The notes under the pieces: generated by a model
The model's input: the letters and a program-made list of their open reading frames with translations, nothing else
Told to the model about the DNA's origin: nothing
The model's database searches: none
Made by a program: the position numbers and the translations under genes
Assembly (NCBI RefSeq): GCF_023169885.1
Contig: NZ_AP025516.1
Location: forward strand, 3,079,501 to 3,143,500
Length of the DNA stretch: 64,000 bases
Direction of reading: 5' to 3'
From: Desulfofustis limnaeus
Lineage (GTDB): Bacteria > Desulfobacterota > Desulfobulbia > Desulfobulbales > Desulfocapsaceae
Part shown: positions 19,154 through 42,910 of the stretch, piece by piece
Position numbering within the stretch: position 1 is the first letter of the stretch
How the letters are laid out: each line of letters starts with the position of its first letter

Positions 19154-19199
<46 letters not shown>

Positions 19200-19322: not shown

Positions 19323-19348
19323 GCAATCCATAGAACCGGCATAGAACC
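19323..19348 (+). repeat. Candidate integrase arm-type site, left
   Basis: A 26-bp sequence containing CATAGAACCGGCATAGAACC, itself a tandem of CATAGAACC. It matches 40290-40315 near the other end in 25 of 26 positions and in the same orientation. The location inside both island ends is what is expected of arm sites bound by the N-terminal domain of a P4-type integrase. Confidence 0.6.
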
Positions 19349-19371: not shown

Positions 19372-20595
19372 ATGTCTAATAAATTCAATTTCACAGACAA
19401 CAAGATCCGCACTGTCCAGCCAATTGCTGATCAAAAACGTGGTTATTACTACGATACGAAGACCGCAGGACTCAGGTTGCAAGTGACAGCATCCGGGACC
19501 AAGTCTTTCCAGTTTCAGGCATGGGATGCCAAGCGGGGCCGACCAGCCACACGCACTCTTGGTAAATACCCGGCCATTTCTATCAATAAAGCTAGAGAGT
19601 TAGCACTGAGGGCAATGACGGCCCTAAGCGACGGTGTTGATATCGAAAACGAGGCTCAACGGCTGCGAGACGAAGATACGCTCGATACCGTTTTCGAGCG
19701 ATGGTTAGATCAATTCGCTATACCTCACAAGAAATCGTGGCCCGAGGATGTCCGCCGTTATGATCTCTACATAAAGAAACCGCTTGGCAACAAACGAGTA
19801 TCGTGGTTTTCAGCTGCGAAAATCAGAGCGTGGCATAACAAGATCACCACCATGCCTAAACAACGCGGGGAAGGAACCTTAACGCAGAGCACAGCTAACC
19901 GCGCCCTCGCCCTTCTGAGCACCGTATTCAATCAGTCATTGCCGGAGATCCCGAATCCCTGTCGTAGCGTCAAGAAATTTCATGAGGAATCGAGAGATCG
20001 ATTTCTCCAGCCGGATGAACTGAAAAGGTTTTTCGAGGCGCTCCTCCATGACGACACACCGGAAACTCTCCGTGACTACGTTCTCATATCTCTTTTCACC
20101 GGGGCACGACGGTCGAACAACCTGTCGATGATGTGGAACGAAATATCCTTCGAAAGGGGCGTCTGGATCATCCCTGCCAAAAAGAGCAAAAATGGCAGTA
20201 CGATGGTAGTCCCGCTCGTTGAAGAGGCTCTGGAAATCCTCCAGAAACGGAAGCAACAAACACGCTCGGTATTCGTTTTCCCCGGATCTGGCAAAACGGG
20301 TCACTATCTGGAACCCAAAAGGGCTTGGAAGTCGCTGATCACTAGAGCAAATCTTCAAGACATCCGTCTTCACGATCTGAGACGGACCATGGGAAGTTGG
20401 CAGACGATGACAGGGGCGAGTTCGACCATTGTCGGCAAAACTCTTGGACACAAATCACCGGAAGCTACGGCAGTTTACGCACGGCTCAATCTCGACCCGG
20501 TACGGACCAGCATGGCCGTCGCCGTCAAAGCAATGTTGGCGAACCAGCTTACCTCAGAAAAAATCAAGTTAATTAGAGAGGTTGAGAAGAGCTAG
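19372..20595 (+). CDS. int: Tyrosine integrase, P4/phage-island type
   Basis: 407-residue site-specific recombinase. The N-terminal ~90 residues form the DUF4102-like arm-binding domain (YYYDTKTAGLRLQVTASGTK). The catalytic residues are R246 in TGARRSN, H334 and R337 in RLHDLRR, H360 in LGHKSPEAT and the nucleophile Y369. All are intact, so the protein should be active. It reads into the island from the attL side. An AGAGG ribosome-binding site precedes the ATG. It is next to the tRNA 3' fragment, not the intact tRNA, which is the less common arrangement. Confidence 0.93.
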   Translation: MSNKFNFTDNKIRTVQPIADQKRGYYYDTKTAGLRLQVTASGTKSFQFQAWDAKRGRPATRTLGKYPAISINKARELALRAMTALSDGVDIENEAQRLRDEDTLDTVFERWLDQFAIPHKKSWPEDVRRYDLYIKKPLGNKRVSWFSAAKIRAWHNKITTMPKQRGEGTLTQSTANRALALLSTVFNQSLPEIPNPCRSVKKFHEESRDRFLQPDELKRFFEALLHDDTPETLRDYVLISLFTGARRSNNLSMMWNEISFERGVWIIPAKKSKNGSTMVVPLVEEALEILQKRKQQTRSVFVFPGSGKTGHYLEPKRAWKSLITRANLQDIRLHDLRRTMGSWQTMTGASSTIVGKTLGHKSPEATAVYARLNLDPVRTSMAVAVKAMLANQLTSEKIKLIREVEKS

Positions 20596-23907: not shown

Positions 23908-25707
23908 ATGAACAAATACTTCAGAGATAAACCTATTGATTTTGAGGCCCATTCACGAAATTTATCTGAGAAAGTCGAACAGTTCGATCGACTAGGAATT
24001 GCAAATTACGCAATTGCATTGTCAGAATTTATTCAAGAATGTTCCACTCCAATGACAATAGGTATTCAAGGAGATTGGGGAATAGGAAAGACAAGCACGC
24101 TCAACCTTATTAAAGCTTATCTTACAACAAGAAAAAGAACACAGGGCAAGAATGCAATCATCTGGTTTAATACATGGCATTATTCGATGTTTAACCAAGA
24201 CGAATTTTTAGGAGCGGCTGTAATCAATGGGCTTCTTGATATAATAAAAGAACAATTTGACCTAAAAGAAGGTGCTATTAACCAAGGCAAAGCTGCTATT
24301 GGAAGAGTCTTAAAGTCTATGGCGGGGTCTATCACTATCGCAGGTGTTTCAATCAATCCAACGAAAGTACTCGAAGCAGATCCCTCTTTTGAAGACAAAT
24401 TAGGATTTACCAATCTTGCTACTCACATGCTAACATTTAGGCAAACATTTCAAAAAATAGTCGATCAAGCACTTGAGAAACAAGGGGGTGAAAGGCTTGT
24501 CATATTTGTAGATGACCTTGACCGCGTTAAACCAGTTAAGGCATTAGAACTTCTAGAATCATTAAAAAATTTTTTAGATGTAGAGCGTTGTGTTTTCGTT
24601 CTTGCGGTCGACTATGAAGTAGTTCAAATCGGAATGGCAGATAAGTTGGGACAAGATATCCAAAAAAGTAGTGGCAAGTCATTTTTTGATAAAATCATTC
24701 AACTACCTTTTACAATGCCTTCTAGTAGTTATTCTCTAGACAATTATATCGAATCTTTGCTCGAAGAAAGTGGATTCGTAGGAGCCAGAGGGATAAAGCA
24801 CGAACACAAACAATTTTATGCTGAAATCACAGCAACAAGTGTCGGACGAAATCCACGCAGTATCAAACGGGTAATAAACTATGCTGTATTACTTGAAAAA
24901 ATACGTAGCATGAATGCAAAATTATCAGAAGGTAAGGTAACCATGCAAGATCGCATGATACTGTATTCTTTGATATGTATGCAAGTTGCTTGGCCGGAAG
25001 TATTCGATCATTTTGTCAGAAATCCTTCAGCAAGTGTAATGCAAAAACTTGAAGATTGGGAGTACTTAGACAGCATTCCTAATATTTCAAAATTATATGC
25101 TAGAACAATCGATGTAACTCAATTGAAAAGTAATATTAGTTCCTACGCAGATCTTTTGTTTGAATTGGTTGACGAAGACCATAGTGGCGCAATAGGCAAG
25201 GAAGAATTTGAACGTGTTTTTAAAATTATGAAACTTACTCGTCTCACAGCAATAGATGACTATAGAGATAGTATTGAAATTATTATTGATAAAATTAATA
25301 ACAATGGAGGAAATGATCGATTTCCAAATTTTATTAATTCATTCAAAAATTCTAGATGGAAAACATCGAAAATTGTAGATTATAAAACTTCTGGATCGCG
25401 ATACGCTACGATTGTTATGTCGCGTAAACAAGTAGGATCAATAGTCACCACCCAACGCAATCCTATTCTTTTCAGGATTGACGCGCAATTAGATGATTTT
25501 TTAAACCATTTTGGCAAAAAAAATGATAATCTATCTGCCAATGACTGGGTGTACGAATTGCCAACTGCAAACCAGATTGGATTTGGAGATATTGCGATCA
25601 ATATAGAAAAGCTTGAAAATGCTGACCATAAAGTAGCTATTAATGTTTTAAATATGATTTTGGAAACTATACATGATATGTACAAACCGAATAGTAATAT
25701 TTCCTGA
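23908..25707 (+). CDS. KAP-family P-loop NTPase with an EF-hand-like loop
   Basis: 599-residue STAND-like KAP NTPase. Walker A GDWGIGKTS is at residues 55-63, followed by the KAP motif WFNTWHYSMFNQ; Walker B with the KAP-type DDLDR (LVIFVDDLDR) is at 197-206. The sensor region ATSVGRNPRSIKRVINY is also typical. In the C-terminal half, residues 422-433 read DEDHSGAIGKEE, a canonical EF-hand calcium loop (DxDxSGxIxxxE), followed by a helix. No transmembrane insertion is obvious, unlike many KAP proteins. KAP NTPases are often found in phage-defence and mobile loci; that role is inferred here. The gene is AT-rich and stands alone behind its own promoter. Confidence 0.82.
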   Translation: MNKYFRDKPIDFEAHSRNLSEKVEQFDRLGIANYAIALSEFIQECSTPMTIGIQGDWGIGKTSTLNLIKAYLTTRKRTQGKNAIIWFNTWHYSMFNQDEFLGAAVINGLLDIIKEQFDLKEGAINQGKAAIGRVLKSMAGSITIAGVSINPTKVLEADPSFEDKLGFTNLATHMLTFRQTFQKIVDQALEKQGGERLVIFVDDLDRVKPVKALELLESLKNFLDVERCVFVLAVDYEVVQIGMADKLGQDIQKSSGKSFFDKIIQLPFTMPSSSYSLDNYIESLLEESGFVGARGIKHEHKQFYAEITATSVGRNPRSIKRVINYAVLLEKIRSMNAKLSEGKVTMQDRMILYSLICMQVAWPEVFDHFVRNPSASVMQKLEDWEYLDSIPNISKLYARTIDVTQLKSNISSYADLLFELVDEDHSGAIGKEEFERVFKIMKLTRLTAIDDYRDSIEIIIDKINNNGGNDRFPNFINSFKNSRWKTSKIVDYKTSGSRYATIVMSRKQVGSIVTTQRNPILFRIDAQLDDFLNHFGKKNDNLSANDWVYELPTANQIGFGDIAINIEKLENADHKVAINVLNMILETIHDMYKPNSNIS

Positions 25708-28527: not shown

Positions 28528-28755
28528 TTGAAAATTGACATCCATAACTTGATTGAAGATGCTCATCAGATCATCGATGGCTCGTCGATCTACGAAGAGA
28601 TCGACCTCAATGTCGCCGTGCAGTCAAGAGATAGAACCAAAGAAATCTATGGTAACGTAGAGGCGGCAACTATCAATGCAAATTTAGAAATGGTTGATAA
28701 GATCAAGGTGGTTACGATTCCATCTCAGGAGGGTATCGTTTTAATAGCAGACTAA
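28528..28755 (+). CDS. Short ORF, possibly a gene fragment
   Basis: 75 codons from a TTG, without a recognisable ribosome-binding site. The product (EEIDLNVAVQSRDRTKEIYG and LEMVDKIKVVTIPSQEGIVL) has the look of real coding sequence and ends as a natural C-terminus, but its 3' end overlaps the cpYpsA gene on the other strand by 44 nt. It may be the tail of a lost gene. No family recognised. Confidence 0.35.
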   Translation: MKIDIHNLIEDAHQIIDGSSIYEEIDLNVAVQSRDRTKEIYGNVEAATINANLEMVDKIKVVTIPSQEGIVLIAD

Positions 28756-29194
28756 TAACCTCATAAACGACACCGTAGATCTTCTCATCCTTAGATGCAC
28801 TTTTTCCTGCAACATTCAGTGTTGCAATGCCGTTTTCTTTAACCCATTGGTTCAATACTTCACATGCTTCAGCGATAGACAAGGCTGTCATGTCAAGATG
28901 GAACCACGGCTTGTTATGCTTGATTGCCAGTTTTCTTGTCAGCTCTGAGCCACCAGACAAACCACCGTGGGTGAAAATAATAGTGCCATCTGAGTTTAGG
29001 ACATTCTGCTCAGTGCGTTTCGGATAACCAGCGGTCGGCATTTCTCGGACTACATAACGCTCTGGCAGAGAACCGACTTCGGTCTTCCTGCCCTTTGGCA
29101 CCCAGCCACCATACGAAAATCCATTGTGAATAGCGGCATCAATAGCCGCAATATCAGCACCCATCTGGCAGCCTGAGACGATCTTCTTCAGCAT
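28712..29194 (-). CDS. Circularly permuted YpsA-like (SLOG) protein
   Basis: 160-residue protein of the cpYpsA/'putative molybdenum carrier' family, a Rossmann-like SLOG domain. The N-terminal LKKIVSGCQMGADIAAIDAA corresponds to the nucleotide-binding SGGQTGAD motif (here SGCQMGAD), followed by GGWVPKGRKTEVGSLPERY and IIFTHGGLSGGSELTRKLA. SLOG domains are thought to sense or process nucleotide-derived ligands and are often found beside defence genes. It lies about 260 bp downstream of the restriction-like operon, on the same strand. A direct role in that system is speculation. Confidence 0.75.
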   Translation of the reverse strand: MLKKIVSGCQMGADIAAIDAAIHNGFSYGGWVPKGRKTEVGSLPERYVVREMPTAGYPKRTEQNVLNSDGTIIFTHGGLSGGSELTRKLAIKHNKPWFHLDMTALSIAEACEVLNQWVKENGIATLNVAGKSASKDEKIYGVVYEVISLLLKRYPPEMES

Positions 29195-29267: not shown

Positions 29268-29462
29268 ATGTTGGGGTTCCCTCATGTATTTCTCCTTCCC
29301 ATAATTCCGGCCATCGCAAATGCTTTTGAAGGCAGTGAGCTGAAGTCAATCATAAATTTGGCTCATCTTGAATTACTCAAGGAGTGGGAGCCAAATCGTA
29401 GCAGGATACCGCCGTCCTTGTTGATAAGAGATGCTTTAGCACTCCCCTCCCTCAAAGTCTAG
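29268..29462 (+). pseudogene. Thermonuclease leader fragment
   Basis: Codons for FLLPIIPAIANAFEGSEL correspond to the signal peptide and first mature residues of the broken SNase-like gene at 22942, with about three-quarters nucleotide identity over some 47 bp. After that the similarity ends. The open frame continues to 29462 and overlaps the stop of the restriction-like gene. It is most likely debris left by recombination. Confidence 0.45.
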
Positions 29463-32101
29463 TTAAGCAGTTCATGATAACGAGCCCCGCCCACACTCTG
29501 GCCACCGATCATTTTATACGTCATGCCACTCACCACCGCCAACTGTTCAGCATAATCTTTCTTCGCTTTGACTATTGAATCGTCCATCTGATGCTCCCCT
29601 TTCACCTCAATAATAACATAGGTGTCATCATCTTTTTTCACAAGAAAATCTGGATAATAGCTGCGTACCGTATGGGATTCGGGGTCGATGTACTGGACAT
29701 AAAAATCTGATTGGCCATGAGTAAGCATCCCGGTGAAATACACTTCTTTGACCTTTTTATCCTGCAGTAGACGCCAAAACAGGTCGCGTTCAGGATTTGA
29801 ATCAAAGCAATAGGTGTCCATGTGGAAACTCTTCTCTGCTGGCATTTTAACAGCTTGAGGATCACTATTCCGGGCCACCTTGTCTTCTTCTCCAGAAACC
29901 TCGTAAAAACCATTTTCAGGCTTATTAATCAGCTCAATATCGTACTCTTCTGTACTCTCGATGGAGGTGATAAGGTAGAGTTTATGAAACAATCGAGGAA
30001 TCAACTCATCATACAGGAGAGCGTTAAACTCGTTCACCATCTCAAGGATCTTGTCTATCCCTTCCGCTGTATCCGCCAGCATGTCTCCAATGGCTAAACA
30101 CGGCTTGTTGAGATAGCGTGCGATCTCAGCCACCAGAGTGAGCTCACTGAAAACACGCTGATCACGCAAATGGCTAAGATCTTCGGCCTTGACCTCTTTT
30201 TGTTTCACTGCGTGGGCAGCGCTCACCCCCTCCTGGGTATAGTGAAGGAGTCTGTACTTTTCAGTATCTACCTGATCAAGTGCCAGGCTAATGGTCCCCG
30301 TTTGTTCCTTTTCCACTATATGGAATTGCCTTTTGATCCGTTTGAGTTTTATTTTCCGCGGTGGAGGCACAACTCGGACCTCATATATATTCTTTTTCTT
30401 GCAGGCCCCTTGAAACTCGTCAGCGCTAATACGGAAATTCTGTTGGAGCTCATCGTTGAGGATCTCCATATTGGAACGACTCAAATAGACATGACCGGTG
30501 TGCTGCACGTCTCCAATCTGGCGAAGACAGCGCATAGTGGCTTGGAGGACAAATATTTTCGAGGTCGGTTCACGAAACAGACCGACTCCGAACAAAGAGC
30601 GGCAATTCCACCCTTCGCGCCCCTTGTTTACCAGCAAAATGAAGCGCTTTTCTGAGCTTGAAGTATCCAATCGGTTGAACTCTCGGATATCATCATTGGT
30701 GGTAATTTTTTCATCGCCAACATTAACCAGGATGGTTTCTGATGAAATACCATGCTTTGCCAGTTCCCTCTCGACAACCGGGCGGAGTATTTGTTGAACC
30801 TCCCTGATTGTTGATCCAAAAATGGCCAGCTTGGGAAGCATTCCCTCTGGCCGCAACCCATCAGTTGCTTTAAGAAAGTTGGCTATTGTTAAGGAAATAA
30901 AATCTTGATCCTTAGTTGTCGTATAACCGTGTAGGATGACCTTTTTCAGGTATTCATTATCAATGGCCTCCTGCAATCCATAAGCATAGACCACTTCCGG
31001 GAGAATTTCCTGACCAACATAGGGGGTGCCAGTGTAATTATAACACGCCACAACATGCGTTCCTGAATTTTCCAAACTCTTAGCCAACAGATCCACCGTA
31101 TTGCGTAAGCTCGTTTTCCTTGTATCTTCCAGGCTGCCAGTGTCTTTCCCGAGGTTTTTTCCAAAGGCATGGTGAGCCTCGTCGATGTAAATCCCTAATT
31201 GCCCGAGACGACGTATTTTTTCAAAACGCTGGTTGGTGGTAAGATCCTGTTCATCTTCAGGGACATCAAACTCGTAAAGATCTGCGGCCTGATCATAGAT
31301 AGACTTTTCGTTATAGGTGAGTTTACCGCTGCCAAAGAGCTTTGCTGTGGGGTTGGCTTCCTTGCGCTGTTTTTTGAGTATAATCTTTTGGGTGTTGGAT
31401 ATGATCAGATTGAATCGGGAATGATCAAGCGTACTCAGCGATGTTCCGGCTTCTTCAAGGAAGTGGAATTGGATATGGCTTGAGAGAAAATTGACATACT
31501 CGGGAGGAACAACTTTATCCATCTCAAAAGTCTGGATCTCCTTGAGCGACTGGAGGACAGTCTTGTCAGGAGCAAATACCAGAGCATTGTGACAGTAGTT
31601 CTTGTCCTTTGGGAACTTGTTGGCCAAGATGAACTCATAAAAGATACAGGTGGCCATGAGTATGGTCTTGCCCGCGCCCATGGTGAGGGCAAAGATATAA
31701 TTCGGGTAGAGCCGGGCTTGCTTCTTCATCCGCTTGAAGACTTTTTCGTAGCTCTTCTCGTCGAACCTGTCAAACATGGAGAGTTGAGTTTCTCCAGCAC
31801 CAGTAAGCCCAATTTCTTTGCGGTTTTCAAAACCGTTTTTCTTTTTATACCAGTTCTCAAATATTTGATGAACGGGTCGGTTATTCTGAAACTCTTTGAG
31901 GAAGATATAGATTTCCAAAGCCTCAAACTGTGGAGTTCGAAGAAAGGCTTTGGCATTTTCGGAATCGTTGAAATCCAAAAACTTCTTTGAAAGATCCCGG
32001 TAGTGCTTGCGAATTGCGCCCTTGTTGTGTCTGTAAAAACGAAGAAGATAGCTGTAAAAGCTAAAGTTAAGTTCGATGGTCTCTTGTTTTCCCTTAGCCA
32101 T
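29459..32101 (-). CDS. Type III restriction-like helicase-nuclease (Res)
   Basis: 880-residue DEAD/DEAH-box superfamily 2 helicase with a C-terminal nuclease. Walker A MGAGKT is at residues 141-146, the DEAH box (YIDEAHHAF) at 307-310, and motif VI-like GLFREPTSKIFVLQATMRCL near the second RecA domain. A PD-(D/E)XK nuclease follows at about 815-834, with PDF then EVKGE (PD at 817-818, E832, K834). This is the architecture of type III Res subunits. It is the last gene of a three-gene operon; its start overlaps the methyltransferase stop by 8 nt. No frameshift is seen, so it should be functional. Confidence 0.85.
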   Translation of the reverse strand: MAKGKQETIELNFSFYSYLLRFYRHNKGAIRKHYRDLSKKFLDFNDSENAKAFLRTPQFEALEIYIFLKEFQNNRPVHQIFENWYKKKNGFENRKEIGLTGAGETQLSMFDRFDEKSYEKVFKRMKKQARLYPNYIFALTMGAGKTILMATCIFYEFILANKFPKDKNYCHNALVFAPDKTVLQSLKEIQTFEMDKVVPPEYVNFLSSHIQFHFLEEAGTSLSTLDHSRFNLIISNTQKIILKKQRKEANPTAKLFGSGKLTYNEKSIYDQAADLYEFDVPEDEQDLTTNQRFEKIRRLGQLGIYIDEAHHAFGKNLGKDTGSLEDTRKTSLRNTVDLLAKSLENSGTHVVACYNYTGTPYVGQEILPEVVYAYGLQEAIDNEYLKKVILHGYTTTKDQDFISLTIANFLKATDGLRPEGMLPKLAIFGSTIREVQQILRPVVERELAKHGISSETILVNVGDEKITTNDDIREFNRLDTSSSEKRFILLVNKGREGWNCRSLFGVGLFREPTSKIFVLQATMRCLRQIGDVQHTGHVYLSRSNMEILNDELQQNFRISADEFQGACKKKNIYEVRVVPPPRKIKLKRIKRQFHIVEKEQTGTISLALDQVDTEKYRLLHYTQEGVSAAHAVKQKEVKAEDLSHLRDQRVFSELTLVAEIARYLNKPCLAIGDMLADTAEGIDKILEMVNEFNALLYDELIPRLFHKLYLITSIESTEEYDIELINKPENGFYEVSGEEDKVARNSDPQAVKMPAEKSFHMDTYCFDSNPERDLFWRLLQDKKVKEVYFTGMLTHGQSDFYVQYIDPESHTVRSYYPDFLVKKDDDTYVIIEVKGEHQMDDSIVKAKKDYAEQLAVVSGMTYKMIGGQSVGGARYHELLN

Positions 32102-34016
32102 GATTGATCTCCTGCTCCAGCGACTCGGAAAGGAGGTCAGTGATTTTTACCCTTATAGTGCCGGCGTCTTTCGGGATTATGTATTCCCCTTTGACCAATT
32201 CATCTCTTTCGGGCAGGTCGACAACAGATGGTTCGAGAACAGCCCCATCATAATTCCAGTCGACCATGATTGATTCTACCAACTCACGCCAGTCATCCAC
32301 CTTTTCCTTCTGCAAGCTGAGCTTCTGAAGGAGGTTCATTGGATAGAATTGTTTGACCACTAGCTTTTTCCCTTCTATGGCGATCCTAGCTTCAGATTCG
32401 CGCTTGAACTCCAGGTTGGCCTTATCACGGAGAATGTCCACTAACTCAACATCCAGATTGAAGGAGACTTCTTTTTTTAGAACGGCTTTCAAATCTGCCT
32501 CATGGCCCATGCAAACCAAGAGAATCTTTTCCACGGGTTGATTGGGTTTTTCCTCCTGGCGACGCTCAAAGGCCTTGTAATCGAAACCAGAGATCAATTC
32601 GTTGAGATCGGCCCGGGTGGCAATACGGTTTACCGGCATGATCTTGACCATTCGGCCGTCTTTTTCTCCATCATAGAGATTGCTCTTCTCAAAGGGGTGA
32701 ATTTCTAATGCTTCGATGAGGAGTTCTTTGGCCTCCAATGGATTTCTGAAAATATCGTAATGGTTGACATTGTATACTTCGAGCCCTGTGAATAACCGGT
32801 AATTTTCTTTGCCAATTATAGTTTGTTGTTTGGTTTGTAGATCATTAGCATTACTCAAAAGACGTTTGGTTGATGTTTGAATAGCCCCTAGATTTATATC
32901 AGCCCCTAAAAACCTGCGTCCCATCTTCATTGCAGCAGCCTGCGTAGTTCCTGATCCCATGAAACTATCAAAAACGATATCTCCAGGATTTGTAGAAGCA
33001 GAAATTATTCGCTCCAATAAAGCCTCAGGTTTTTGGGTGGGATATTTTAAATAATTGCCGCTCCGGCTCATTACTGCAGGAATATCTGCCCACACATCTT
33101 GGATAACAGCTCCCTCTACTTCATCAAGGTAACGTTTTAGACGCGGGACTCCTTCTGCGCTCCATTCAATTCTCTCTTCTTCTAAAAACTTGTCCAATGT
33201 TTCTAATTTATAAGCCCAGCCACGGCCTTCGGGAGGTTTGACCCCCTGCCATATAGGAACATGTTTAGCTGGATGTCCACTATGTAGAGGTTGGGTTACA
33301 TAGGGTCCTCTAGCATCAACTTTATTAAAGGTCGCTCTATACTCATCAGAAATAGGGCCATATTGCTTATTCCACGTGTAAGTATTAGTTTTTGTATAAA
33401 AAAGAATAGTATCTTTTATTCTTCCAAAATATTCCGGGTGAGACTTACCAGGACCTCTAGTCCACACAATGTCATTTTTAAAATTCGAAGGTCCAAAAAG
33501 CTCATCCATTATACATCTGACATGGTGCACTTTCTCGTGATTCAAATGAACATATATCGAGCCTTCATTTGACAATAATTCCCGAATAATCACTAACCTC
33601 TCATACAAATATTGCAGATATTCATCGTTAGTCCAAATATCTGTATATTGCTTTTCTTCAAAGCTCCCATAGTCATTAATCGCTTGTTTTCCTTTAATAT
33701 TAATAATTTTTTTATAGTCAGCTTTTGAATCATAAGGCGGATCGATATAGATTAATTTTACTTTGCCCCTATAGTCCTTTAAAAGGTGACTCATTACCTG
33801 AAGATTATCCCCCCAATAAATTCTATTTCGCCATCCTTCAACCTCTTCCCCATAACTCTCCTTTAACTGAGCTGGATAAAACTGGGTCGAAGTAAAGGGC
33901 CGCTTTCCCCTCCAGTTGAGCATAGGGAATCCCTGAATAGGCTCAAACTCATACTTTCCTACTTCAGTGATTTCGCTTGCTGAGGTACCAAAATTCAAGT
34001 TTCCTTGTTTGCTCAT
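32094..34016 (-). CDS. Type III-like adenine DNA methyltransferase (Mod, beta class)
   Basis: 640-residue N6-adenine/N4-cytosine DNA methyltransferase. The catalytic DPPY is at residues 92-95 (LIYIDPPYDSKADY) and the SAM-binding motif FDSFMGSGTT at 349-358, preceded by YPTQKPEALLERII. Because the catalytic motif comes before the SAM motif it is a beta-class enzyme, as type III Mod proteins are. The target-recognition region would be between them. The ~270-residue C-terminal part presumably contacts Res. It overlaps the upstream UvrD gene by 4 nt and the downstream res by 8 nt. Confidence 0.88.
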   Translation of the reverse strand: MSKQGNLNFGTSASEITEVGKYEFEPIQGFPMLNWRGKRPFTSTQFYPAQLKESYGEEVEGWRNRIYWGDNLQVMSHLLKDYRGKVKLIYIDPPYDSKADYKKIINIKGKQAINDYGSFEEKQYTDIWTNDEYLQYLYERLVIIRELLSNEGSIYVHLNHEKVHHVRCIMDELFGPSNFKNDIVWTRGPGKSHPEYFGRIKDTILFYTKTNTYTWNKQYGPISDEYRATFNKVDARGPYVTQPLHSGHPAKHVPIWQGVKPPEGRGWAYKLETLDKFLEEERIEWSAEGVPRLKRYLDEVEGAVIQDVWADIPAVMSRSGNYLKYPTQKPEALLERIISASTNPGDIVFDSFMGSGTTQAAAMKMGRRFLGADINLGAIQTSTKRLLSNANDLQTKQQTIIGKENYRLFTGLEVYNVNHYDIFRNPLEAKELLIEALEIHPFEKSNLYDGEKDGRMVKIMPVNRIATRADLNELISGFDYKAFERRQEEKPNQPVEKILLVCMGHEADLKAVLKKEVSFNLDVELVDILRDKANLEFKRESEARIAIEGKKLVVKQFYPMNLLQKLSLQKEKVDDWRELVESIMVDWNYDGAVLEPSVVDLPERDELVKGEYIIPKDAGTIRVKITDLLSESLEQEINHG

Positions 34017-36925
34017 TTTTCCACTCTAAAGATCCAATTTTTCGTGTCACAGTAGGAGCGCATATCGCATTCTACGCAAAGTTTCTCTGGTCGCTCAGGA
34101 ATATTGAAGTCATGGCTCTCAATACTCCCGACAACCTCGTCAAAGGTTTGAATCGTTCTCTCTATGGAACCATCGTCCTTATTAAAGGAAATGTAGGGGT
34201 TGCCGGCCTCTTCGCTGGTATAATAGAGGTGTGTTTTGGTTACCTTTAGACCAGTACGCTCCTCTACCAAGTGCGCATACACCTCAAGCTGGCGCTGATA
34301 ACGTCGCAGCTTCTCGCGGTCCTTCTCCATGTCCGGCTTTTTCTCTGACTTAAAATCAACAATCTCTACAGTATCATCCTCGCCGGTAATCAAATCCACA
34401 CTCCCTTTTAAAATGTACTGATCCTTGACCAAGGAAATATCTACCTCAGCCTCAACAATCCGTGACCAGTCGCCTCTGTGGCGATCATAGTATCGTATTA
34501 CATGGCCGAGGGCTACCTTCCGGATCGGCTCAGCCAGGTAGACCCGCTCTCTTTTGGTGAGGTACTTGTAGTTGGTCTCAAACCAGGAACTGATCTGCTC
34601 ATGCGAGAGCTTTGCCTCGTCCCCACGTAGCACTGTCTTATGGATGTCTTCGATGGTCTGGTGGACTAGCGTGCCGAAAAGAATAGGACTCTTGCGGACC
34701 GGGCTGAACTCCAATTCCTTAAAAAAGAGGTATTGCTGGGCGCAGTTTTCAAAAAGAGAAAGATGGGAAGTAAAAGAATACTCTCGCTTGAGACGAACTT
34801 CCTTTATCTGGTCTAGGTTTAGAAAATGTGGAATGAACGCTGCATCCCGCCATGATGGTAGGGCATCATAATAATCTACGAAATGTTTAGATGGTGTTCT
34901 CCCCCGGCCAGAAACTTCCTGGCAGGTTAAGGCAAGTACATTCTGAGCTCTGGAGTAGGCTGTATAGTAGAGCCTCCAAAAATCATAATATTTCGTGTGT
35001 TCGATTGGCTCAAAAGGTGGCCGCGAAAGATAGTCCCGCTCCAAGATCTCGTCTAGGTCGGTGTACTGTTTTCTCGGAGTAGCATGAAGAGAACCAACCA
35101 TGACCACCGGAAATTCTAACCCCTTTGACTGGTGGATAGTAAGGAAAGAGACACAGTCACGGGGTGCATACTCTGAACTATCCTCATATTCATCAATCCC
35201 GCCCTCTTTTAAAAAGCGCAGAAAGGTGTTGAAGAGAGTCTTAACGTTCCCTTCGAGATAAGCCGGGTTCAACACGGAGATATGGTGGAGATATTCAAAT
35301 TTGACGAGCAATCTGGTAAGCATGGCCAGGTTACGAGCTGCCCGCTCATCGACCAACTGTCCGTTTTCATCCTCGCTTAAGAAGCGGCTGAACAAAGGAA
35401 ACCGGAGAAGACTATAGAAAAGACCCGTGAAGCCATAGTCTGTATTCTCTGTTAGCACGAAATGTTTTTTGGCCAAAGAACGCGCCCAGACCAGAAGGTC
35501 TTTGTTCTCCGGTTGACGCAATTCATGGACAAAAGGGGCAAAACACTCTTGATCGTAATAATCCCAAATAGCCAGGTGGGCACTATCCGACCACTTCCTA
35601 ATCTCAGGGAATTGGGGAAAAAGAAAGATAAGTGCTCCGAATATTAGGCGGACTTCTTCCCGATCAAAAAACATATTAGAGCGTGGAGAGTAGACCCCTA
35701 TTCCCCGCTCCTCAAGAGACCTAGCTAGAGAGACCACCCGATGGTGTTTGACCGAACGAAAGAGAAAGGCTACTTGGTTCCAATTAGTAATTATTCCTTC
35801 ACCTCGGAGATAGGTCAAAAAGTCATAAACCTCATTATGCCAGTTGCCATTAATACCCGAAGAGACCTTGAGAACTGTTGCAGTCTCTGGAAAATTCAGT
35901 GAATTATTCTCCTCTATAACCTTATCATAACGAAAGGTTTGCCCACCAAAAGTCCAGCCCTCCCGTTCCATCCAACGATTAAAATATCGGATAATGTCGG
36001 GATGTGAGCGGTAATTAATAGTGAGGTTGACCTGTTTACAGATCCCCCCACCGAATTGCTCTTTGAAAGTTAGTATGTTGCGAATAGATGCACCACGGAA
36101 ACGATATAACCCTTGATCATCGTCACCAACCACGCAAAGGTTTGGATTTTCACCGCAGAGGAGCTTAAGAAACATCTCTTGGATAGTATTTGTGTCCTGA
36201 TACTCATCCACCATCATGTATTTAATTTTGCCCCTGAGGTCTCGCAGCACCTCTGGGAAGTTCCGCAGCAGAAGTAAAGCCTCATATTGGATACCTGAAA
36301 AATCGAGAACATTATGTTCCTCTAGCTGATGGTGATAAAGTTGCAAACACTTCCCGAGAGCCTGCACCGCCCCATCATTGGCCTTTATCAGCCCAGCTGG
36401 ATCGAGGGCCTCTTCCGTCGCCTTATTCAACCACGTCACGAGAGACTCAGAGCGTTTCCAGCGGCTACTTCCTGGATCCCCAAGTATTACCTGGGCGTTG
36501 TCGATATCCCCGTATGGATCAAGATTCTGATAGAGAAAATACTGTTGATCAAACTGATCCATTAATGAAAAGCTACGCTGTAATCTCGTATATTCCCGAT
36601 GTTCTTCTATTAACCTGAGGCAGATGGAATGAAACGTCCCCAGATACATTTCATGAAGATTGAACCGAATACCAAGCTCCAGAAGGCGGTTAGAAACGCG
36701 CGTGGTGAGTTCTGCCGCAGCCTTTTCTGTAAACGTTACAACGAATAAGGACTCTGGTTCAGCCCCCTTTTCGATAATGAGATAAACCACTCTCTCGACA
36801 AGGGTGAAGGTTTTGCCGGAACCGGGGCCAGCAATAATCAGCAAAGGCCCTTCCGTTGCTTGAATAGCTTCAAGCTGCTGTTTGTTTGCCTTGGTCTGAA
36901 AAAGGTGCTTTGTCGAAGTTTTCAT
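34013..36925 (-). CDS. UvrD/Rep-family helicase with RecB-type Fe-S nuclease domain
   Basis: 970-residue superfamily 1A helicase from the ATG at 36925; the frame is open 183 nt further upstream but the P-loop region fits this start. Walker A GPGSGKT is at residues 33-39, motif II MVDEYQDTN, motif III VVGDDDQGLYRFRGA and motif V LTIHQSKGLEFPVV. The C-terminal ~230 residues form a RecB/AddB/Cas4-like PD-(D/E)XK nuclease: GSVDLI, IVDFKSEKK and QLEVYA. A cysteine before it (LSLFENCAQQYLF) plus three after (CVECDMRSYC) look like a 4Fe-4S cluster site. First gene of the operon with mod and res; TTGACA (36950-36955, minus strand) could be its -35. Confidence 0.85.
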   Translation of the reverse strand: MKTSTKHLFQTKANKQQLEAIQATEGPLLIIAGPGSGKTFTLVERVVYLIIEKGAEPESLFVVTFTEKAAAELTTRVSNRLLELGIRFNLHEMYLGTFHSICLRLIEEHREYTRLQRSFSLMDQFDQQYFLYQNLDPYGDIDNAQVILGDPGSSRWKRSESLVTWLNKATEEALDPAGLIKANDGAVQALGKCLQLYHHQLEEHNVLDFSGIQYEALLLLRNFPEVLRDLRGKIKYMMVDEYQDTNTIQEMFLKLLCGENPNLCVVGDDDQGLYRFRGASIRNILTFKEQFGGGICKQVNLTINYRSHPDIIRYFNRWMEREGWTFGGQTFRYDKVIEENNSLNFPETATVLKVSSGINGNWHNEVYDFLTYLRGEGIITNWNQVAFLFRSVKHHRVVSLARSLEERGIGVYSPRSNMFFDREEVRLIFGALIFLFPQFPEIRKWSDSAHLAIWDYYDQECFAPFVHELRQPENKDLLVWARSLAKKHFVLTENTDYGFTGLFYSLLRFPLFSRFLSEDENGQLVDERAARNLAMLTRLLVKFEYLHHISVLNPAYLEGNVKTLFNTFLRFLKEGGIDEYEDSSEYAPRDCVSFLTIHQSKGLEFPVVMVGSLHATPRKQYTDLDEILERDYLSRPPFEPIEHTKYYDFWRLYYTAYSRAQNVLALTCQEVSGRGRTPSKHFVDYYDALPSWRDAAFIPHFLNLDQIKEVRLKREYSFTSHLSLFENCAQQYLFFKELEFSPVRKSPILFGTLVHQTIEDIHKTVLRGDEAKLSHEQISSWFETNYKYLTKRERVYLAEPIRKVALGHVIRYYDRHRGDWSRIVEAEVDISLVKDQYILKGSVDLITGEDDTVEIVDFKSEKKPDMEKDREKLRRYQRQLEVYAHLVEERTGLKVTKTHLYYTSEEAGNPYISFNKDDGSIERTIQTFDEVVGSIESHDFNIPERPEKLCVECDMRSYCDTKNWIFRVEK

Positions 36926-37180
36926 AACATATTGAATGACTGAATTTTTTGTCAAATTCAAGAGTAAAAGAAACCTCCCAAGGGGAACAGCGGCTTTGAG
37001 TACATTTGAATATCTCTTTGTTGATGTGCAACCATTTTGAGATTGCATGGGACGGAGAGGTGTTGCTAAAGGGAAACTTGGTGGAAATAATTTCTTGGCC
37101 TCCGTCATCCCCGAATTTGTTCTGTATCCTCAAGTAAACAATGTAAACTTCAGAACTCTAACCCCTTTTTATAGCGGCTG

Positions 37181-40289: not shown

Positions 40290-40315
40290 GCAATTCATAG
40301 AACCGGCATAGAACC
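40290..40315 (+). repeat. Candidate integrase arm-type site, right
   Basis: 26-bp match (one mismatch) to 19323-19348, including the full CATAGAACCGGCATAGAACC. It is 48 bp inside the right attachment site. Confidence 0.6.
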
Positions 40316-40363: not shown

Positions 40364-40440
<77 letters not shown>

Positions 40441-40567: not shown

Positions 40568-42910
40568 CTATTGTTCCTCCGTCTCCGTGACCCGTTTCCA
40601 CACCGGGCCGTTGGCCGTATCAATGACGGCGATGCCGCGCTCCGCCAGTTCATTGCGGGCCCGGTCGGCAGTCTGCCAGTCTTTTTCCACCCGGGCCTTT
40701 TCGCGTAGTTGAATGAGCGCATCGATCTCCGGCTCGAGCGGACAGCCTTTGAGCTTAAAGATCTTCAGGACCTGATTGAGCTGGTCGAGCTTCTCGATGA
40801 TATAGCTTTTCTGGTCCCGGTCCAGATGGTTGATCTGCAGGATCGGATTGACCTTCTTAATAAAATTATAGATGGCAGCCATGGCCAGGGAGACGTTGAG
40901 GTCGTCATCCATGGCGGCGAAGAACTGCTCTTCGAGGGCGGAGACATAGGCAGTCACTTCCGGATGGGGGCGTCCAGGAGGCAGACAGAGCAACTTGCAG
41001 GTGAAGTCATCCAGCCGTTTCAGGGCGGTCCTGACATTCTCCAGCCGCTTGAGGGAAAAATGGATCGGCTTGCGGTACTGCACCGAGATCAGCATGAAGC
41101 GAACCTCCCGGCCGGTGAAGCCGCGGGCCAGCAGGTCCTTGAGGGTGACCACGTTGTTGTTTTCGGGGGACATCTTTTTGCCATCCACCAACAGCAGCTC
41201 AGAGTGCAGCCAATAGCGGGCCAGCGGTTTACCGGTCAGAGCCTCGGCGATGGCGATCTCGTTCTCGTGGTGGGGGAACATCAGGTCCCGGCTCGAGGTA
41301 TGGATGTCGAGCGTCTCGCCGAGATAACCGGTGGACATGGCCGAACACTCGATATGCCAACTCGGCCGGACGTTACCCCAATCGGTCTCGAAAAAAATGC
41401 CCTTCTTCAGTTCAGACAGAGTCGATCGTTTGAGCAGCGTGAAATCGCGAGGGTTGTCCTTTTCGTAGTTATCCAGATCAACGGTGCGCCCCACCTGTAT
41501 TTTGGACAAATCGATACCGGAGAGCTTGCCGTAGCGGGGAAACTTGGAGATATCGAAATAGATGGAGCCGTGCTTCTCGTAGGCGAACCCCTTGTGGATC
41601 AGCTGATGGCTGATGTCGATCATGTCCTGCACATGCTCAGAGGCCTTCGGGTAGCCATTGGCTCGACGCACCCCGAGGGTATCGATATCGGACAGGAAAC
41701 TATCGATATACCGTTCCGTAAATTCCTTGAGCCCCAGACCGGTCTCCTCCGCCCCGGCGATGGTGTTGTCGTCGAGATCGGTAAAATTCATGTAAGAGGC
41801 GACCTCATGGCCGCGGGCCTCGAGATAGCGTACGATCAGGTCCGCGACCACAAAGCGGCGGCACAATGACAGACTGGCCGGCTGATAGGCGGTCGGACCG
41901 CAGGAATAGAAGGTGACCCGTTCCTTGCTGGCCGGCACGAAGGGCTCCTTCTTCTTGGTCATGGTATTGAAAAAGCGCAGCCGCGGTTTCTTGCCCTCGG
42001 CCGGCGGCTCCTTGGGGGTGAACAGCGGCGTGCTCAGATAACGCTCGCCACCGTCCGGCAGCATGGCCACTATCAGTCCTTCCGAAAGTGTCTCGGCGAG
42101 TTGCAGTGCTGCATACATGGCCGCACCGCTGCTCATGCCGACGAATATGCCCTCCTGCCGCGCCAGTTTCCGGGCCGTAATGAAGGCGTCGTCGTCGTCG
42201 ATGGTGACGATCGAGGCCGGTACCGACTTGTCAAAGATCCCCGGCCGATATGACTCCTTCATGTTTTTCAGGCCCTGAATCTTGTGGCCGAGGTGCGGCT
42301 CCACCGCCACCACCTCTACCTGCGGCTGGAACTCCCGGAACCAGGCGCTCAGGCCCATTACGGTGCCGGATGTCCCGAGGGTGGCCACTACGTGGGTGAC
42401 CCGTCCGTCGGTCTGCTCCCAGATCTCCGGTGCGGTCTGGTCGTAATGGGAGCGCCAGTTAGCCTCGTTGTTGTATTGATCGGTGAGGAAATAGCGTTGC
42501 GGGTACTCCCGGGCCAGAGCGTAGGCCTTTTCGATGGCCCCGTCGGTCGCTCGGGCTGCCGGCGTCAACAGGATCTCGGCCCCGTAAGCCTGCATGATGC
42601 GGCGCCGCTCGATGGATGCCGATTCCGGCATCACCAGCATGCAACGATAGCCCTTGGCGGCGCAAACCATGGCCAGACCGATCCCGGTATTGCCGCTGGT
42701 GGCTTCAAGTACGATCTTGTCTCTGGTCAATTCACCGGATCGCTCACCGGCCTCGATCATCGAAAGGGAGATACGTTCCTTGATGGAGCCGCCCGGATTG
42801 CGGGATTCAAGCTTGGCAGCGACGGTCACCGCCGGATTCGGGTTGAGTCGATTGATCCGGACTAGCGGGGTATTGCCAATGGATTCGAGTATCGTGTTAT
42901 AGATCATCAC
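40568..42910 (-). CDS. Cysteine synthase/cysteinyl-tRNA synthetase-like fusion
   Basis: 780-residue fusion. Residues 1-300 are a PLP-dependent cysteine synthase: GGSIKERI with the PLP lysine K44, TSGNTG at 71-76 and LGTSGTVMG. Residues from about 317 are a CysRS-like domain starting YSCGPTAY. The zinc ligands C337, C522 (WHIECSAM), H547 and E551 (HHENE) are kept with normal spacing. The HIGH motif is replaced by SLSL (346-349) and KMSKS by KMSPE (579-583), so tRNA charging as in normal CysRS is doubtful. The C-terminal ~150 residues with AMDDDLNVSLAMAAIYNF are also CysRS-like. The start could be either of two adjacent ATGs. Confidence 0.88.
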   Translation of the reverse strand: MMIYNTILESIGNTPLVRINRLNPNPAVTVAAKLESRNPGGSIKERISLSMIEAGERSGELTRDKIVLEATSGNTGIGLAMVCAAKGYRCMLVMPESASIERRRIMQAYGAEILLTPAARATDGAIEKAYALAREYPQRYFLTDQYNNEANWRSHYDQTAPEIWEQTDGRVTHVVATLGTSGTVMGLSAWFREFQPQVEVVAVEPHLGHKIQGLKNMKESYRPGIFDKSVPASIVTIDDDDAFITARKLARQEGIFVGMSSGAAMYAALQLAETLSEGLIVAMLPDGGERYLSTPLFTPKEPPAEGKKPRLRFFNTMTKKKEPFVPASKERVTFYSCGPTAYQPASLSLCRRFVVADLIVRYLEARGHEVASYMNFTDLDDNTIAGAEETGLGLKEFTERYIDSFLSDIDTLGVRRANGYPKASEHVQDMIDISHQLIHKGFAYEKHGSIYFDISKFPRYGKLSGIDLSKIQVGRTVDLDNYEKDNPRDFTLLKRSTLSELKKGIFFETDWGNVRPSWHIECSAMSTGYLGETLDIHTSSRDLMFPHHENEIAIAEALTGKPLARYWLHSELLLVDGKKMSPENNNVVTLKDLLARGFTGREVRFMLISVQYRKPIHFSLKRLENVRTALKRLDDFTCKLLCLPPGRPHPEVTAYVSALEEQFFAAMDDDLNVSLAMAAIYNFIKKVNPILQINHLDRDQKSYIIEKLDQLNQVLKIFKLKGCPLEPEIDALIQLREKARVEKDWQTADRARNELAERGIAVIDTANGPVWKRVTETEEQ

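What the first reader, a model, noticed from the sequence alone, without database searches (positions are those of the whole stretch)
29459..36925. Three-gene overlapping operon: UvrD/RecB helicase-nuclease, beta-class Mod, type III-like Res
Seen: three large minus-strand genes overlap by 4 nt and 8 nt, all frames intact, inside a tRNA-integrated island. Mod has DPPY before FDSFMGSGTT; Res has MGAGKT, DEAH and a PD...EVK nuclease; the first gene is an SF1 helicase with a RecB-type nuclease and four cysteines placed for an Fe-S cluster. Known: type III restriction is Mod plus Res only. Inference: the UvrD/RecB protein is an integral third subunit, giving a restriction-degradation defence system in which cleaved DNA is processed by a dedicated AddB-like nuclease. 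I do not know a named system with exactly this composition.
Basis: partly seen in the sequence, partly recalled or inferred. Interest (0 to 1): 0.75.

Follow-up and report, generated by a model that had tools for sequence, protein, structure and literature searches.

The report
Mobile restriction system with built-in helicase-nuclease
Three neighbouring genes on a mobile DNA island look like a bacterial anti-virus restriction system that carries its own helicase-nuclease, probably to finish off the DNA it cuts; the gene set recurs in many unrelated bacteria and was noticed in print in 2017, but I found no report of a test of how it works.

Summary
Three intact minus-strand genes overlap by 4 and 8 nt: a UvrD-type helicase + RecB/Cas4-type nuclease (Uvr, likely start 36925), a beta-class Mod, and a Res with a TnsA-like nuclease. 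They lie in a 21-kb, low-GC tRNA-Arg island with a tyrosine integrase and exact 45-bp att repeats.

The trio is a real unit. Mod and Res accompany Uvr in 70 of 72 genome loci with room to see them. Found from the Res side, near-full close copies also have Uvr, except one remnant and two contigs too short to tell. Uvr and Res diverge in parallel (r = 0.98), while the Mod recognition segment is swapped freely (r about 0). Eleven more distant Mod-Res loci lack Uvr; on a Res tree one change explains this.

Best reading: a type III-like restriction-modification system with a dedicated helicase-nuclease, probably processing cut DNA. The RM part is well supported; Uvr's role is inferred.

The architecture is not new: Hudaiberdiev et al. 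2017 reported UvrD-Cas4 genes most commonly beside type III Mod and Res, unnamed. Added here: the single acquisition, parallel evolution, recognition-segment swapping, and a divergent ATPase-nuclease gene beside a third of relatives, absent from this window.

The parts
34013..36925 (-). Uvr: UvrD-type SF1 helicase fused to RecB/Cas4-type PD-(D/E)XK nuclease with a cysteine quartet, 970 aa (ORF could start at 37108)
36053..36886 (-). UvrD N-terminal helicase domain of Uvr
   Evidence: PF00580 E 5e-74
34046..34768 (-). RecB/Cas4-type nuclease domain of Uvr
   Evidence: PF12705 E 4.6e-22, PF01930 E 3.3e-6
34049..34078 (-). Last three of the four predicted Fe-S cysteines, C950/C953/C959 (the first, C728, is at 34742-34744)
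   Evidence: invariant in 21 of 21; the cluster itself is inferred
32094..34016 (-). Mod: beta-class N6/N4 DNA methyltransferase, 640 aa, best sequence match among solved structures EcoP15I Mod
33732..33743 (-). Mod motif IV, DPPY
   Evidence: D92, P93, P94 invariant in 20 of 20
33093..33461 (-). Mod residues 186-308: hypervariable segment, predicted target-recognition domain
   Evidence: identity unlinked to the rest of Mod
32943..32963 (-). Mod motif I, FMGSGTT
   Evidence: F352, G354, G356, T357 invariant in 20 of 20
29459..32101 (-). Res: SF2 helicase with C-terminal TnsA-like PD-(D/E)XK nuclease, 880 aa
31664..31684 (-). Res Walker A (TMGAGKT)
31169..31183 (-). Res motif II, DEAHH
   Evidence: invariant in 20 of 20
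29507..29698 (-). Res TnsA-like nuclease domain with PD...EVK
   Evidence: PF08722 E 3e-6; Foldseek to TnsA 1t0f_A E 4.6e-3, probability 1.00
40364..40408 (-). att repeat in the tRNA-Arg 3' end (island right end)
19154..19198 (-). att repeat, exact 45-bp copy (island left end)
19372..20595 (+). Tyrosine integrase of the island
   Evidence: Phage_integrase E 3e-22

Best explanation
This is a mobile type III-like restriction-modification system with a dedicated third enzyme. Mod recognises a short sequence through its exchangeable target-recognition domain and methylates it, marking self DNA. Res, an ATP-driven SF2 motor with a TnsA-like nuclease, acts with Mod on unmodified incoming DNA and cuts it. 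Uvr, a UvrD-type motor with an Fe-S RecB/Cas4-type nuclease, then loads on the break and unwinds and degrades or trims the DNA, so that the invader cannot be resealed or copied even if the cell's own RecBCD/AddAB is absent or blocked. Shown by sequence: the domains, the intact catalytic motifs, the conserved gene set, and a recognition segment that swaps independently. Inferred: the cutting, the order of events, and any physical complex with Uvr.
For: Trio conserved: 70 of 78 Uvr-seeded genome loci have Mod and Res; six of the other 8 end under 4.8 kb beyond Uvr, so 70 of 72 with room. Res-seeded: 14 of 16 viral-contig loci have a long Uvr match, one (L183) a 78-residue remnant, one (L169) no room; two of three further close genome copies (L156, L158) have Uvr and the third contig (L157) is too short to tell; 14 of 14 plasmid records with a near-full Res are in the Uvr list with Uvr a few kb away; phage record H36 has Uvr. 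Uvr-Res identities r = 0.98, as high as between the two halves of Uvr (0.95); 0 of 2000 permutations reach it. Recognition segment against Mod core r = 0.06, against Res -0.01; L045/L046: Res 99%, Uvr 99%, segment 22%. Constraint against L005: Uvr pN 0.078 with pS 0.758, Res 0.081/0.759, Uvr nuclease half 0.057/0.782. Mod best matches EcoP15I Mod by profile (E 2.8e-35) and Foldseek (E 2.8e-22). Res tree: one change of Uvr state, SH-aLRT 99. Island, conjugative-plasmid and phage carriage.
Against: No activity, complex or phage protection was tested. Eleven distant Mod-Res loci do without Uvr, so it is not needed for such systems in general. Uvr also occurs without Mod-Res: L057, plasmid L092 with only a Mod remnant, viral L200 at 41% identity; truncated Uvr in L078 and L183, a Uvr in two pieces in plasmid KJ645709. 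Hudaiberdiev et al. argue for an ancillary role. No PADLOC model hits Res at E 1e-3, no solved chain matches Res by sequence at E 0.01, and the Res model is weak (pLDDT 66). Parallel divergence also follows from plain co-inheritance.
Confidence: 0.55

Rival explanations
1. Uvr is a protector: it repairs breaks that the restriction enzyme makes in the host chromosome, for example at newly replicated unmethylated sites, by resecting ends for recombination as AddAB/RecBCD do.
For: The domains are those of recombination helicase-nucleases; Hudaiberdiev et al. predict a RecB/AddB-like role in promoting recombination. Protection against self-cutting would also keep it linked to Res.
Against: Related Mod-Res loci exist without Uvr. 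The genome holds two further frames with partial similarity to Uvr's helicase part (743 and 1222 aa), so other UvrD/AddA-type helicases may be available; their identity was not checked.
Confidence: 0.22
2. Uvr is a physical part of the restriction complex: its SF1 motor and nuclease make or complete the first cut, so that restriction fails altogether without it.
For: Uvr-Res divergence in parallel (r 0.98), tight gene overlaps, catalytic residues kept in 21 of 21.
Against: Res keeps its own motor and nuclease motifs; distant relatives manage without Uvr; no interaction data.
Confidence: 0.15
3. An ordinary Mod-Res pair beside a hitch-hiking repair gene with no functional link.
For: Islands collect unrelated genes; here a KAP ATPase and a SLOG gene lie nearby.
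Against: 70 of 72 loci, six phyla in the tree sample, parallel divergence, strong constraint on Uvr.
Confidence: 0.04

Closest known systems
UvrD-Cas4-like fusion next to type III Mod and Res (Hudaiberdiev et al. 2017, PMC5704561; section 8 read in full)
   Same: Same three components: a pfam12705 Cas4-like nuclease fused to a UvrD-like helicase, most commonly beside Mod and Res of type III RM; predicted defence function.
   Different: Context only: no name or experiment in the section read, and an ancillary role is favoured. Its figure and supplements were not seen, so identity of the family rests on composition and the Pfam domain.
Type III restriction-modification, e.g. EcoP15I (structure 4zcf)
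   Same: Mod motif order and best matches; Res has an SF2 motor plus C-terminal PD-(D/E)XK nuclease; adjacent overlapping genes.
   Different: Third gene Uvr; the Res nuclease is TnsA-like, and no PADLOC model hits Res at E 1e-3.
BPTD_3080-family restriction endonuclease (NCBIfam NF046055)
   Same: The only NCBIfam match of Res at E 1e-3, E 2.4e-17.
   Different: 62 bits against a cut-off of 800: a distant relative, not a member.
Gabija (GajAB)
   Same: UvrD-type helicase; GajB models match the helicase part, about residues 60-380 of the 1031-aa frame.
   Different: Mod and Res instead of GajA; Uvr has its own nuclease. A GajA/OLD-like gene sits between Uvr and Mod in one relative, L063.
AddAB / RecBCD
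   Same: SF1 motor plus RecB-family nuclease; four cysteines spaced as in AddB/Cas4 (recalled).
   Different: No AddB/RecC-type partner among the operon proteins; part of an RM locus.
Hma (Payne et al. 2021, PMC8565338; passages seen)
   Same: Three-gene operon with a helicase and a methyltransferase.
   Different: Hma has a predicted m5C methyltransferase and an ATPase.

Membership tests
Type III restriction-modification | Beta-class Mod (DPPY before FxGxG) with a variable target-recognition domain | tested here: met
   EcoP15I Mod is the best profile match and the best Foldseek match
Type III restriction-modification | Res: SF2 helicase plus C-terminal PD-(D/E)XK nuclease, gene next to mod | tested here: met
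   both Pfam scores only just above their cut-offs
Type III restriction-modification | Res resembles characterised type III Res proteins | tested here: inconclusive
   no PADLOC model at E 1e-3, no solved chain at E 0.01; nuclease resembles TnsA; weak model
Type III restriction-modification | One-strand N6-adenine methylation of an asymmetric site; ATP-dependent cutting needing two sites (recalled) | not testable with these tools
   needs methylome and biochemistry
UvrD-Cas4 / Mod / Res locus (Hudaiberdiev 2017) | pfam12705 nuclease fused to UvrD-like helicase | tested here: met
   PF12705 79.6 bits (cut-off 22), PF00580 249.8 bits (cut-off 23)
UvrD-Cas4 / Mod / Res locus (Hudaiberdiev 2017) | adjacent Mod and Res of type III RM | tested here: met
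UvrD-Cas4 / Mod / Res locus (Hudaiberdiev 2017) | same clade as the published proteins | not tested
   their loci are in a figure and supplements not held
Gabija | GajA (OLD-type ATPase-TOPRIM) partner | tested here: not met
   no AAA_15 or OLD-type domain at E 0.01 among the 10 proteins of 28-39.6 kb scanned
Hma | m5C methyltransferase HmaB | tested here: not met
   the methyltransferase is N6_N4_Mtase

The most novel reading that the evidence does not exclude
A clade of type III-like restriction systems acquired an Fe-S helicase-nuclease once and came to depend on it, making a three-enzyme restriction-and-degradation machine whose target reader is swapped between bacteria while Res and Uvr stay locked together; in one large subgroup it gained a fourth, divergently encoded GHKL-ATPase/nuclease (TmtA/paraMORC3-like) as a further layer.
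Probability: 0.35. Interest if true: 0.65.

Novelty: new member of a known kind. Interest (0 to 1): 0.45.

Why it matters
Restriction systems are usually described as cutting and leaving the clean-up to the cell. A widespread restriction family that brings its own helicase-nuclease would show how defence can be kept working against phages that disable RecBCD-type enzymes (inference). The trio is compact and mobile, and single-gene deletions would decide quickly. No model of PADLOC-DB 2.0.0 (2023) hits Res at E 1e-3, so annotation with it would probably not report such loci as one system.

Tried and rejected
Tried without use: paper searches did not list the key paper (one search showed 20 of 24); it came. 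The E. coli genome collection has no near match to the Mod-Res part of the Enterobacter copy (near mode only). The first viral scan with the single Res found no relative; the Res alignment found 16. No solved chain matches Res by sequence at E 0.01. In the VIA-align rows for Res the best are SWI/SNF-type motors, with one type ISP restriction enzyme, LlaGI (Z 9.6, 155 residues, 3.1 A): generic SF2 matches, not used for membership; EcoP15I Res is not among the 50 rows shown, which excludes nothing. An apparent Mod-Res fusion in L068 (1554-aa frame) contains an undetermined residue and may be an assembly frameshift: not used. The idea that Uvr is needed by all such Mod-Res systems was rejected: distant pairs lack it.

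Rows dropped before counts: the conservation lines used 63 Uvr, 61 Mod and 63 Res rows, window included (complete ORFs in set length ranges); one search used the 46 rows, window included, that have all three. The recognition segment 186-308 was chosen because it is variable, so its low identity is by construction; the unlinked correlation and the swap pairs are the evidence. The tree holds 24 of the 78 Uvr-seeded loci, 7 viral/phage rows, the window and 10 rows without Uvr; L156-L158, L165, L111, L112, L166, L167 and the rest were left out, and L183 was labelled Uvr though it holds only a remnant. Of the 71 viral loci only L185-L207 were examined. In the genome searches the tool scored only the top few candidates per genome (for example 2 of 6).
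Full report
Observation. The three genes are as described: Uvr 36925..34013, Mod 34016..32094, Res 32101..29459, all minus strand, with overlaps of 4 and 8 nt. The first frame could start at 37108, but 68 of 78 genome matches align only from residue 61 or later of that frame; 10 reach further up, and in two of these (L015, L016) a stop codon falls in the early part. Pfam gives UvrD-helicase and PDDEXK_1 for Uvr, N6_N4_Mtase for Mod, ResIII and Tn7_TnsA-like_N for Res. In 21 aligned Uvr proteins the helicase motifs, the RecB-type nuclease residues and four cysteines are invariant; in 20 Res proteins DEAHH and the PD...ExK residues are invariant, and Walker A except one position; in 20 Mod proteins DPP of motif IV and F, G, G, T of motif I are invariant. 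That the cysteines bind an Fe-S cluster is inferred from the AddB/Cas4 pattern (recalled).

Surroundings. The genes sit in an integrated element of 21 kb between exact 45-bp repeats at 19154-19198 and 40364-40408, the latter in the 3' end of tRNA-Arg, with a tyrosine integrase at 19372-20595 and GC 44.7% against 56.3% and 59.5% in the rest of the window. It also carries a KAP ATPase gene, two transposase genes and a circularly permuted SLOG gene. Of 58 genomes searched as relatives, the window's own included, only the own genome has a close Res. The nearest locus from elsewhere is a Desulfobacteraceae MAG with 86% (Uvr), 85% (Res) and 67% (Mod) identity.

Conservation, Uvr side. One scan of species genomes with Uvr gave 78 loci. 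Mod and Res are both present in 70 of 78, in 68 of these 70 in the order Uvr-Mod-Res on one strand by the script's test. Of the 8 without both, six have less than 4.8 kb of contig beyond Uvr (four of the six do show Mod); two are exceptions, L057 and L078 (a truncated Uvr). So 70 of 72 with room. Mod overlaps Res by 8 nt in 36 and 11 nt in 18 of 63 measured loci; Uvr overlaps Mod by 4 nt in 13 and 1 nt in 10 of 56. Among viral contigs found by Uvr, of the 16 at 41% identity or more (L185-L200) 14 have all three genes, L198 has Uvr and Res pieces without Mod, and L200 has neither Mod nor Res. None of the seven more distant ones examined (L201-L207) has the trio; 48 were not examined.

Conservation, Res side. 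Because those loci were found by Uvr, the reverse test matters. Scanning viral contigs with a Res alignment gave 16 loci: 14 have a long Uvr match, L183 only a 78-residue C-terminal remnant, and L169 starts inside Mod; L176 and L177 give the same match coordinates and identities and are probably duplicates, and most of these contigs are the same ones as in the Uvr scan. In the plasmid collection 26 records match Res; 14 cover it at 80% or more, and all 14 are among the 15 best Uvr records, with Uvr and Res a few kb apart on one strand by the listed positions. Some are near-duplicates, and in KJ645709 Uvr is in two pieces. Of the 12 other records I looked at two: L091, an enterococcal Res cut off by an insertion sequence with no Uvr annotated in the stretch, and the distant L093. 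The phage record H36 (50%) has Uvr. The genome searches (tool counter 1,844, some genomes more than once) gave three further close full-length copies beyond the window and the six centres: G573 and G1429 have Uvr; in G1396 the contig holds about 740 nt before Mod, without a Uvr match, which is too short to tell, since Uvr and Mod lie 2.8 kb apart in L074 from the same phylum. G193 has two Res ends at contig ends, uninformative. Eleven distant Mod-Res loci (Res 25-36% identity: L093, L094, L109, L110, L159-L165) show no Uvr match at E 1e-3 in the 8-21 kb held; L162-L164 are near-copies on the tree, and L109's Mod is in several pieces. L166, a fragmentary locus, has a distant UvrD-like match (25-26%) near its Mod and is counted neither way.

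Evolution. On a quick Res tree of 42 rows, rows with and without Uvr are separated by one branch (SH-aLRT 99; one change against 9.1 in shuffles), with six phyla in the Uvr clade. The nearest row without Uvr, L159, has a long end branch, so the exact point of gain is unsure; it has a gene with a weak EVE match (21.9 bits, below the cut-off of 23) between Mod and Res. Across 46 rows with all three complete proteins, pairwise identities of Uvr and Res correlate at r = 0.98, Uvr and Mod core at 0.86, Res and Mod core at 0.87, and the two halves of Uvr at 0.95; no permutation of 2000 reached these. Co-inheritance explains this as well as physical contact. The Mod segment 186-308, chosen as the variable part, has median identity 25% against 70% for the rest of Mod, and r = 0.06 with the Mod core and -0.01 with Res. 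L045/L046 are 99% alike in Res and Uvr but 22% in this segment; L035 (Enterobacter) and L048 (Bacillus) share it at 77%, above their Mod core at 69%. That is what a swapped target-recognition domain would look like. Between the window and L005, synonymous sites are near saturation (pS 0.76) while pN is 0.078 in Uvr and 0.081 in Res (0.208 in Mod), and both halves of Uvr are constrained.

Structures. Mod's best solved relatives are EcoP15I Mod by profile (E 2.8e-35) and by Foldseek (E 2.8e-22); by VIA-align EcoP15I Mod (Z 21.9, 353 residues, 5.6 A) lies within about 1 of the top of a group of beta-class methyltransferases. The Mod model has pLDDT 70. Res (pLDDT 66) gives TnsA (1t0f_A, E 4.6e-3, probability 1.00; nothing reaches E 0.001) and generic SF2 motors.

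Variation. A gene of about 1,100 aa lies beside 27 of 78 loci (26 of 67 with 3.5 kb held upstream of Uvr). In 24 of the 27 it is divergent and its match begins 97-377 nt from the estimated Uvr start; the others are L026 (739 nt, partial match), L064 (3.5 kb) and L015 (downstream of Res). It has a sacsin-type ATPase domain and a NOV_C domain, matches PADLOC TmtA models (E 4.8e-65), and fits the paraMORC3 description (GHKL ATPase with a C-terminal nuclease) of Iyer et al. 2008 (PMC2292703; section 5 and passages read). Its identities correlate with Res at 0.81 (n = 19) and with Uvr at 0.59 (n = 15), against 0.85 for Uvr and Res in the same loci (n = 14). A distant Uvr relative, L201, has the same type of gene directly after Uvr. 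The window has none. Other insertions: an OLD-type ATPase between Uvr and Mod in L063 and an HNH protein between Mod and Res in L028. L057 carries a Uvr of this family (60-62% to its nearest) near an N6-methylase gene and without Mod-Res in the 10 kb held downstream.

How it most likely works. Mod marks self DNA; Res with Mod cuts unmarked DNA; Uvr processes or degrades the ends. The first two steps follow from the families (type III RM, established knowledge). The third is inference from domain content and conservation. A host-protection role and an integral role in cutting remain open.

Known or new. Hudaiberdiev et al. 2017 (PMC5704561; section 8 read in full, other passages seen) describe UvrD-Cas4 fusions whose most common neighbourhood is type III Mod and Res, argue for defence, and think the protein ancillary. 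They also report a Dcm/Vsr context, which I did not search for. I found no name or experiment for the trio in ten text searches (an eleventh attempt failed); beyond the papers named here I saw listings only. The library holds open-licence papers only, so absence there is weak evidence. Passages only were seen of PMC8565338, PMC3710099, PMC7641849 and PMC10653904 (Cas4-like and UvrD as separate genes, another setting); PMC12839542 had none of the five terms looked for. I therefore file the window as a new member of a kind described in 2017, with interest resting on the apparently untested third enzyme and the evolutionary pattern.

Noticed in passing
L035:6405-9716(-) and 26 other Uvr-seeded loci: Gene of about 1,100 aa (sacsin-type ATPase + NOV_C domain, TmtA/paraMORC3-like) beside the trio in 27 of 78 loci, divergent and close to Uvr in 24; possibly a fourth component.
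   Followed up: partly
window 23908-25707 (+): KAP-type P-loop ATPase in the same island, matching PADLOC PDC-S20, QatA and PifA models.
   Followed up: no
window 28712-29194 (-): Circularly permuted SLOG (cpYpsA) gene downstream of Res; none of the 82 loci held showed a match to it at E 1e-5.
   Followed up: partly
window 40568-42910 (-): A single ORF with a PLP-dependent enzyme domain followed by a cysteinyl-tRNA synthetase, next to the island's tRNA-Arg.
   Followed up: no
window 19329-19348 and 40296-40315 (-): An identical 20-bp repeat inside each island end, possibly integrase arm sites.
   Followed up: no
L159:7821-9029: Gene with a weak EVE-domain match (below the Pfam cut-off) between Mod and Res in the nearest relative without Uvr.
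   Followed up: no
L057:9983-16107: Uvr of the same family near an N6-methylase/specificity-type gene instead of Mod-Res.
   Followed up: partly
L063:12865-14829; L028:15618-18023: OLD-type ATPase-TOPRIM gene between Uvr and Mod; HNH protein between Mod and Res.
   Followed up: no
L068:12847-17511: Mod and Res read as one 1554-aa frame; a fusion or an assembly frameshift.
   Followed up: partly
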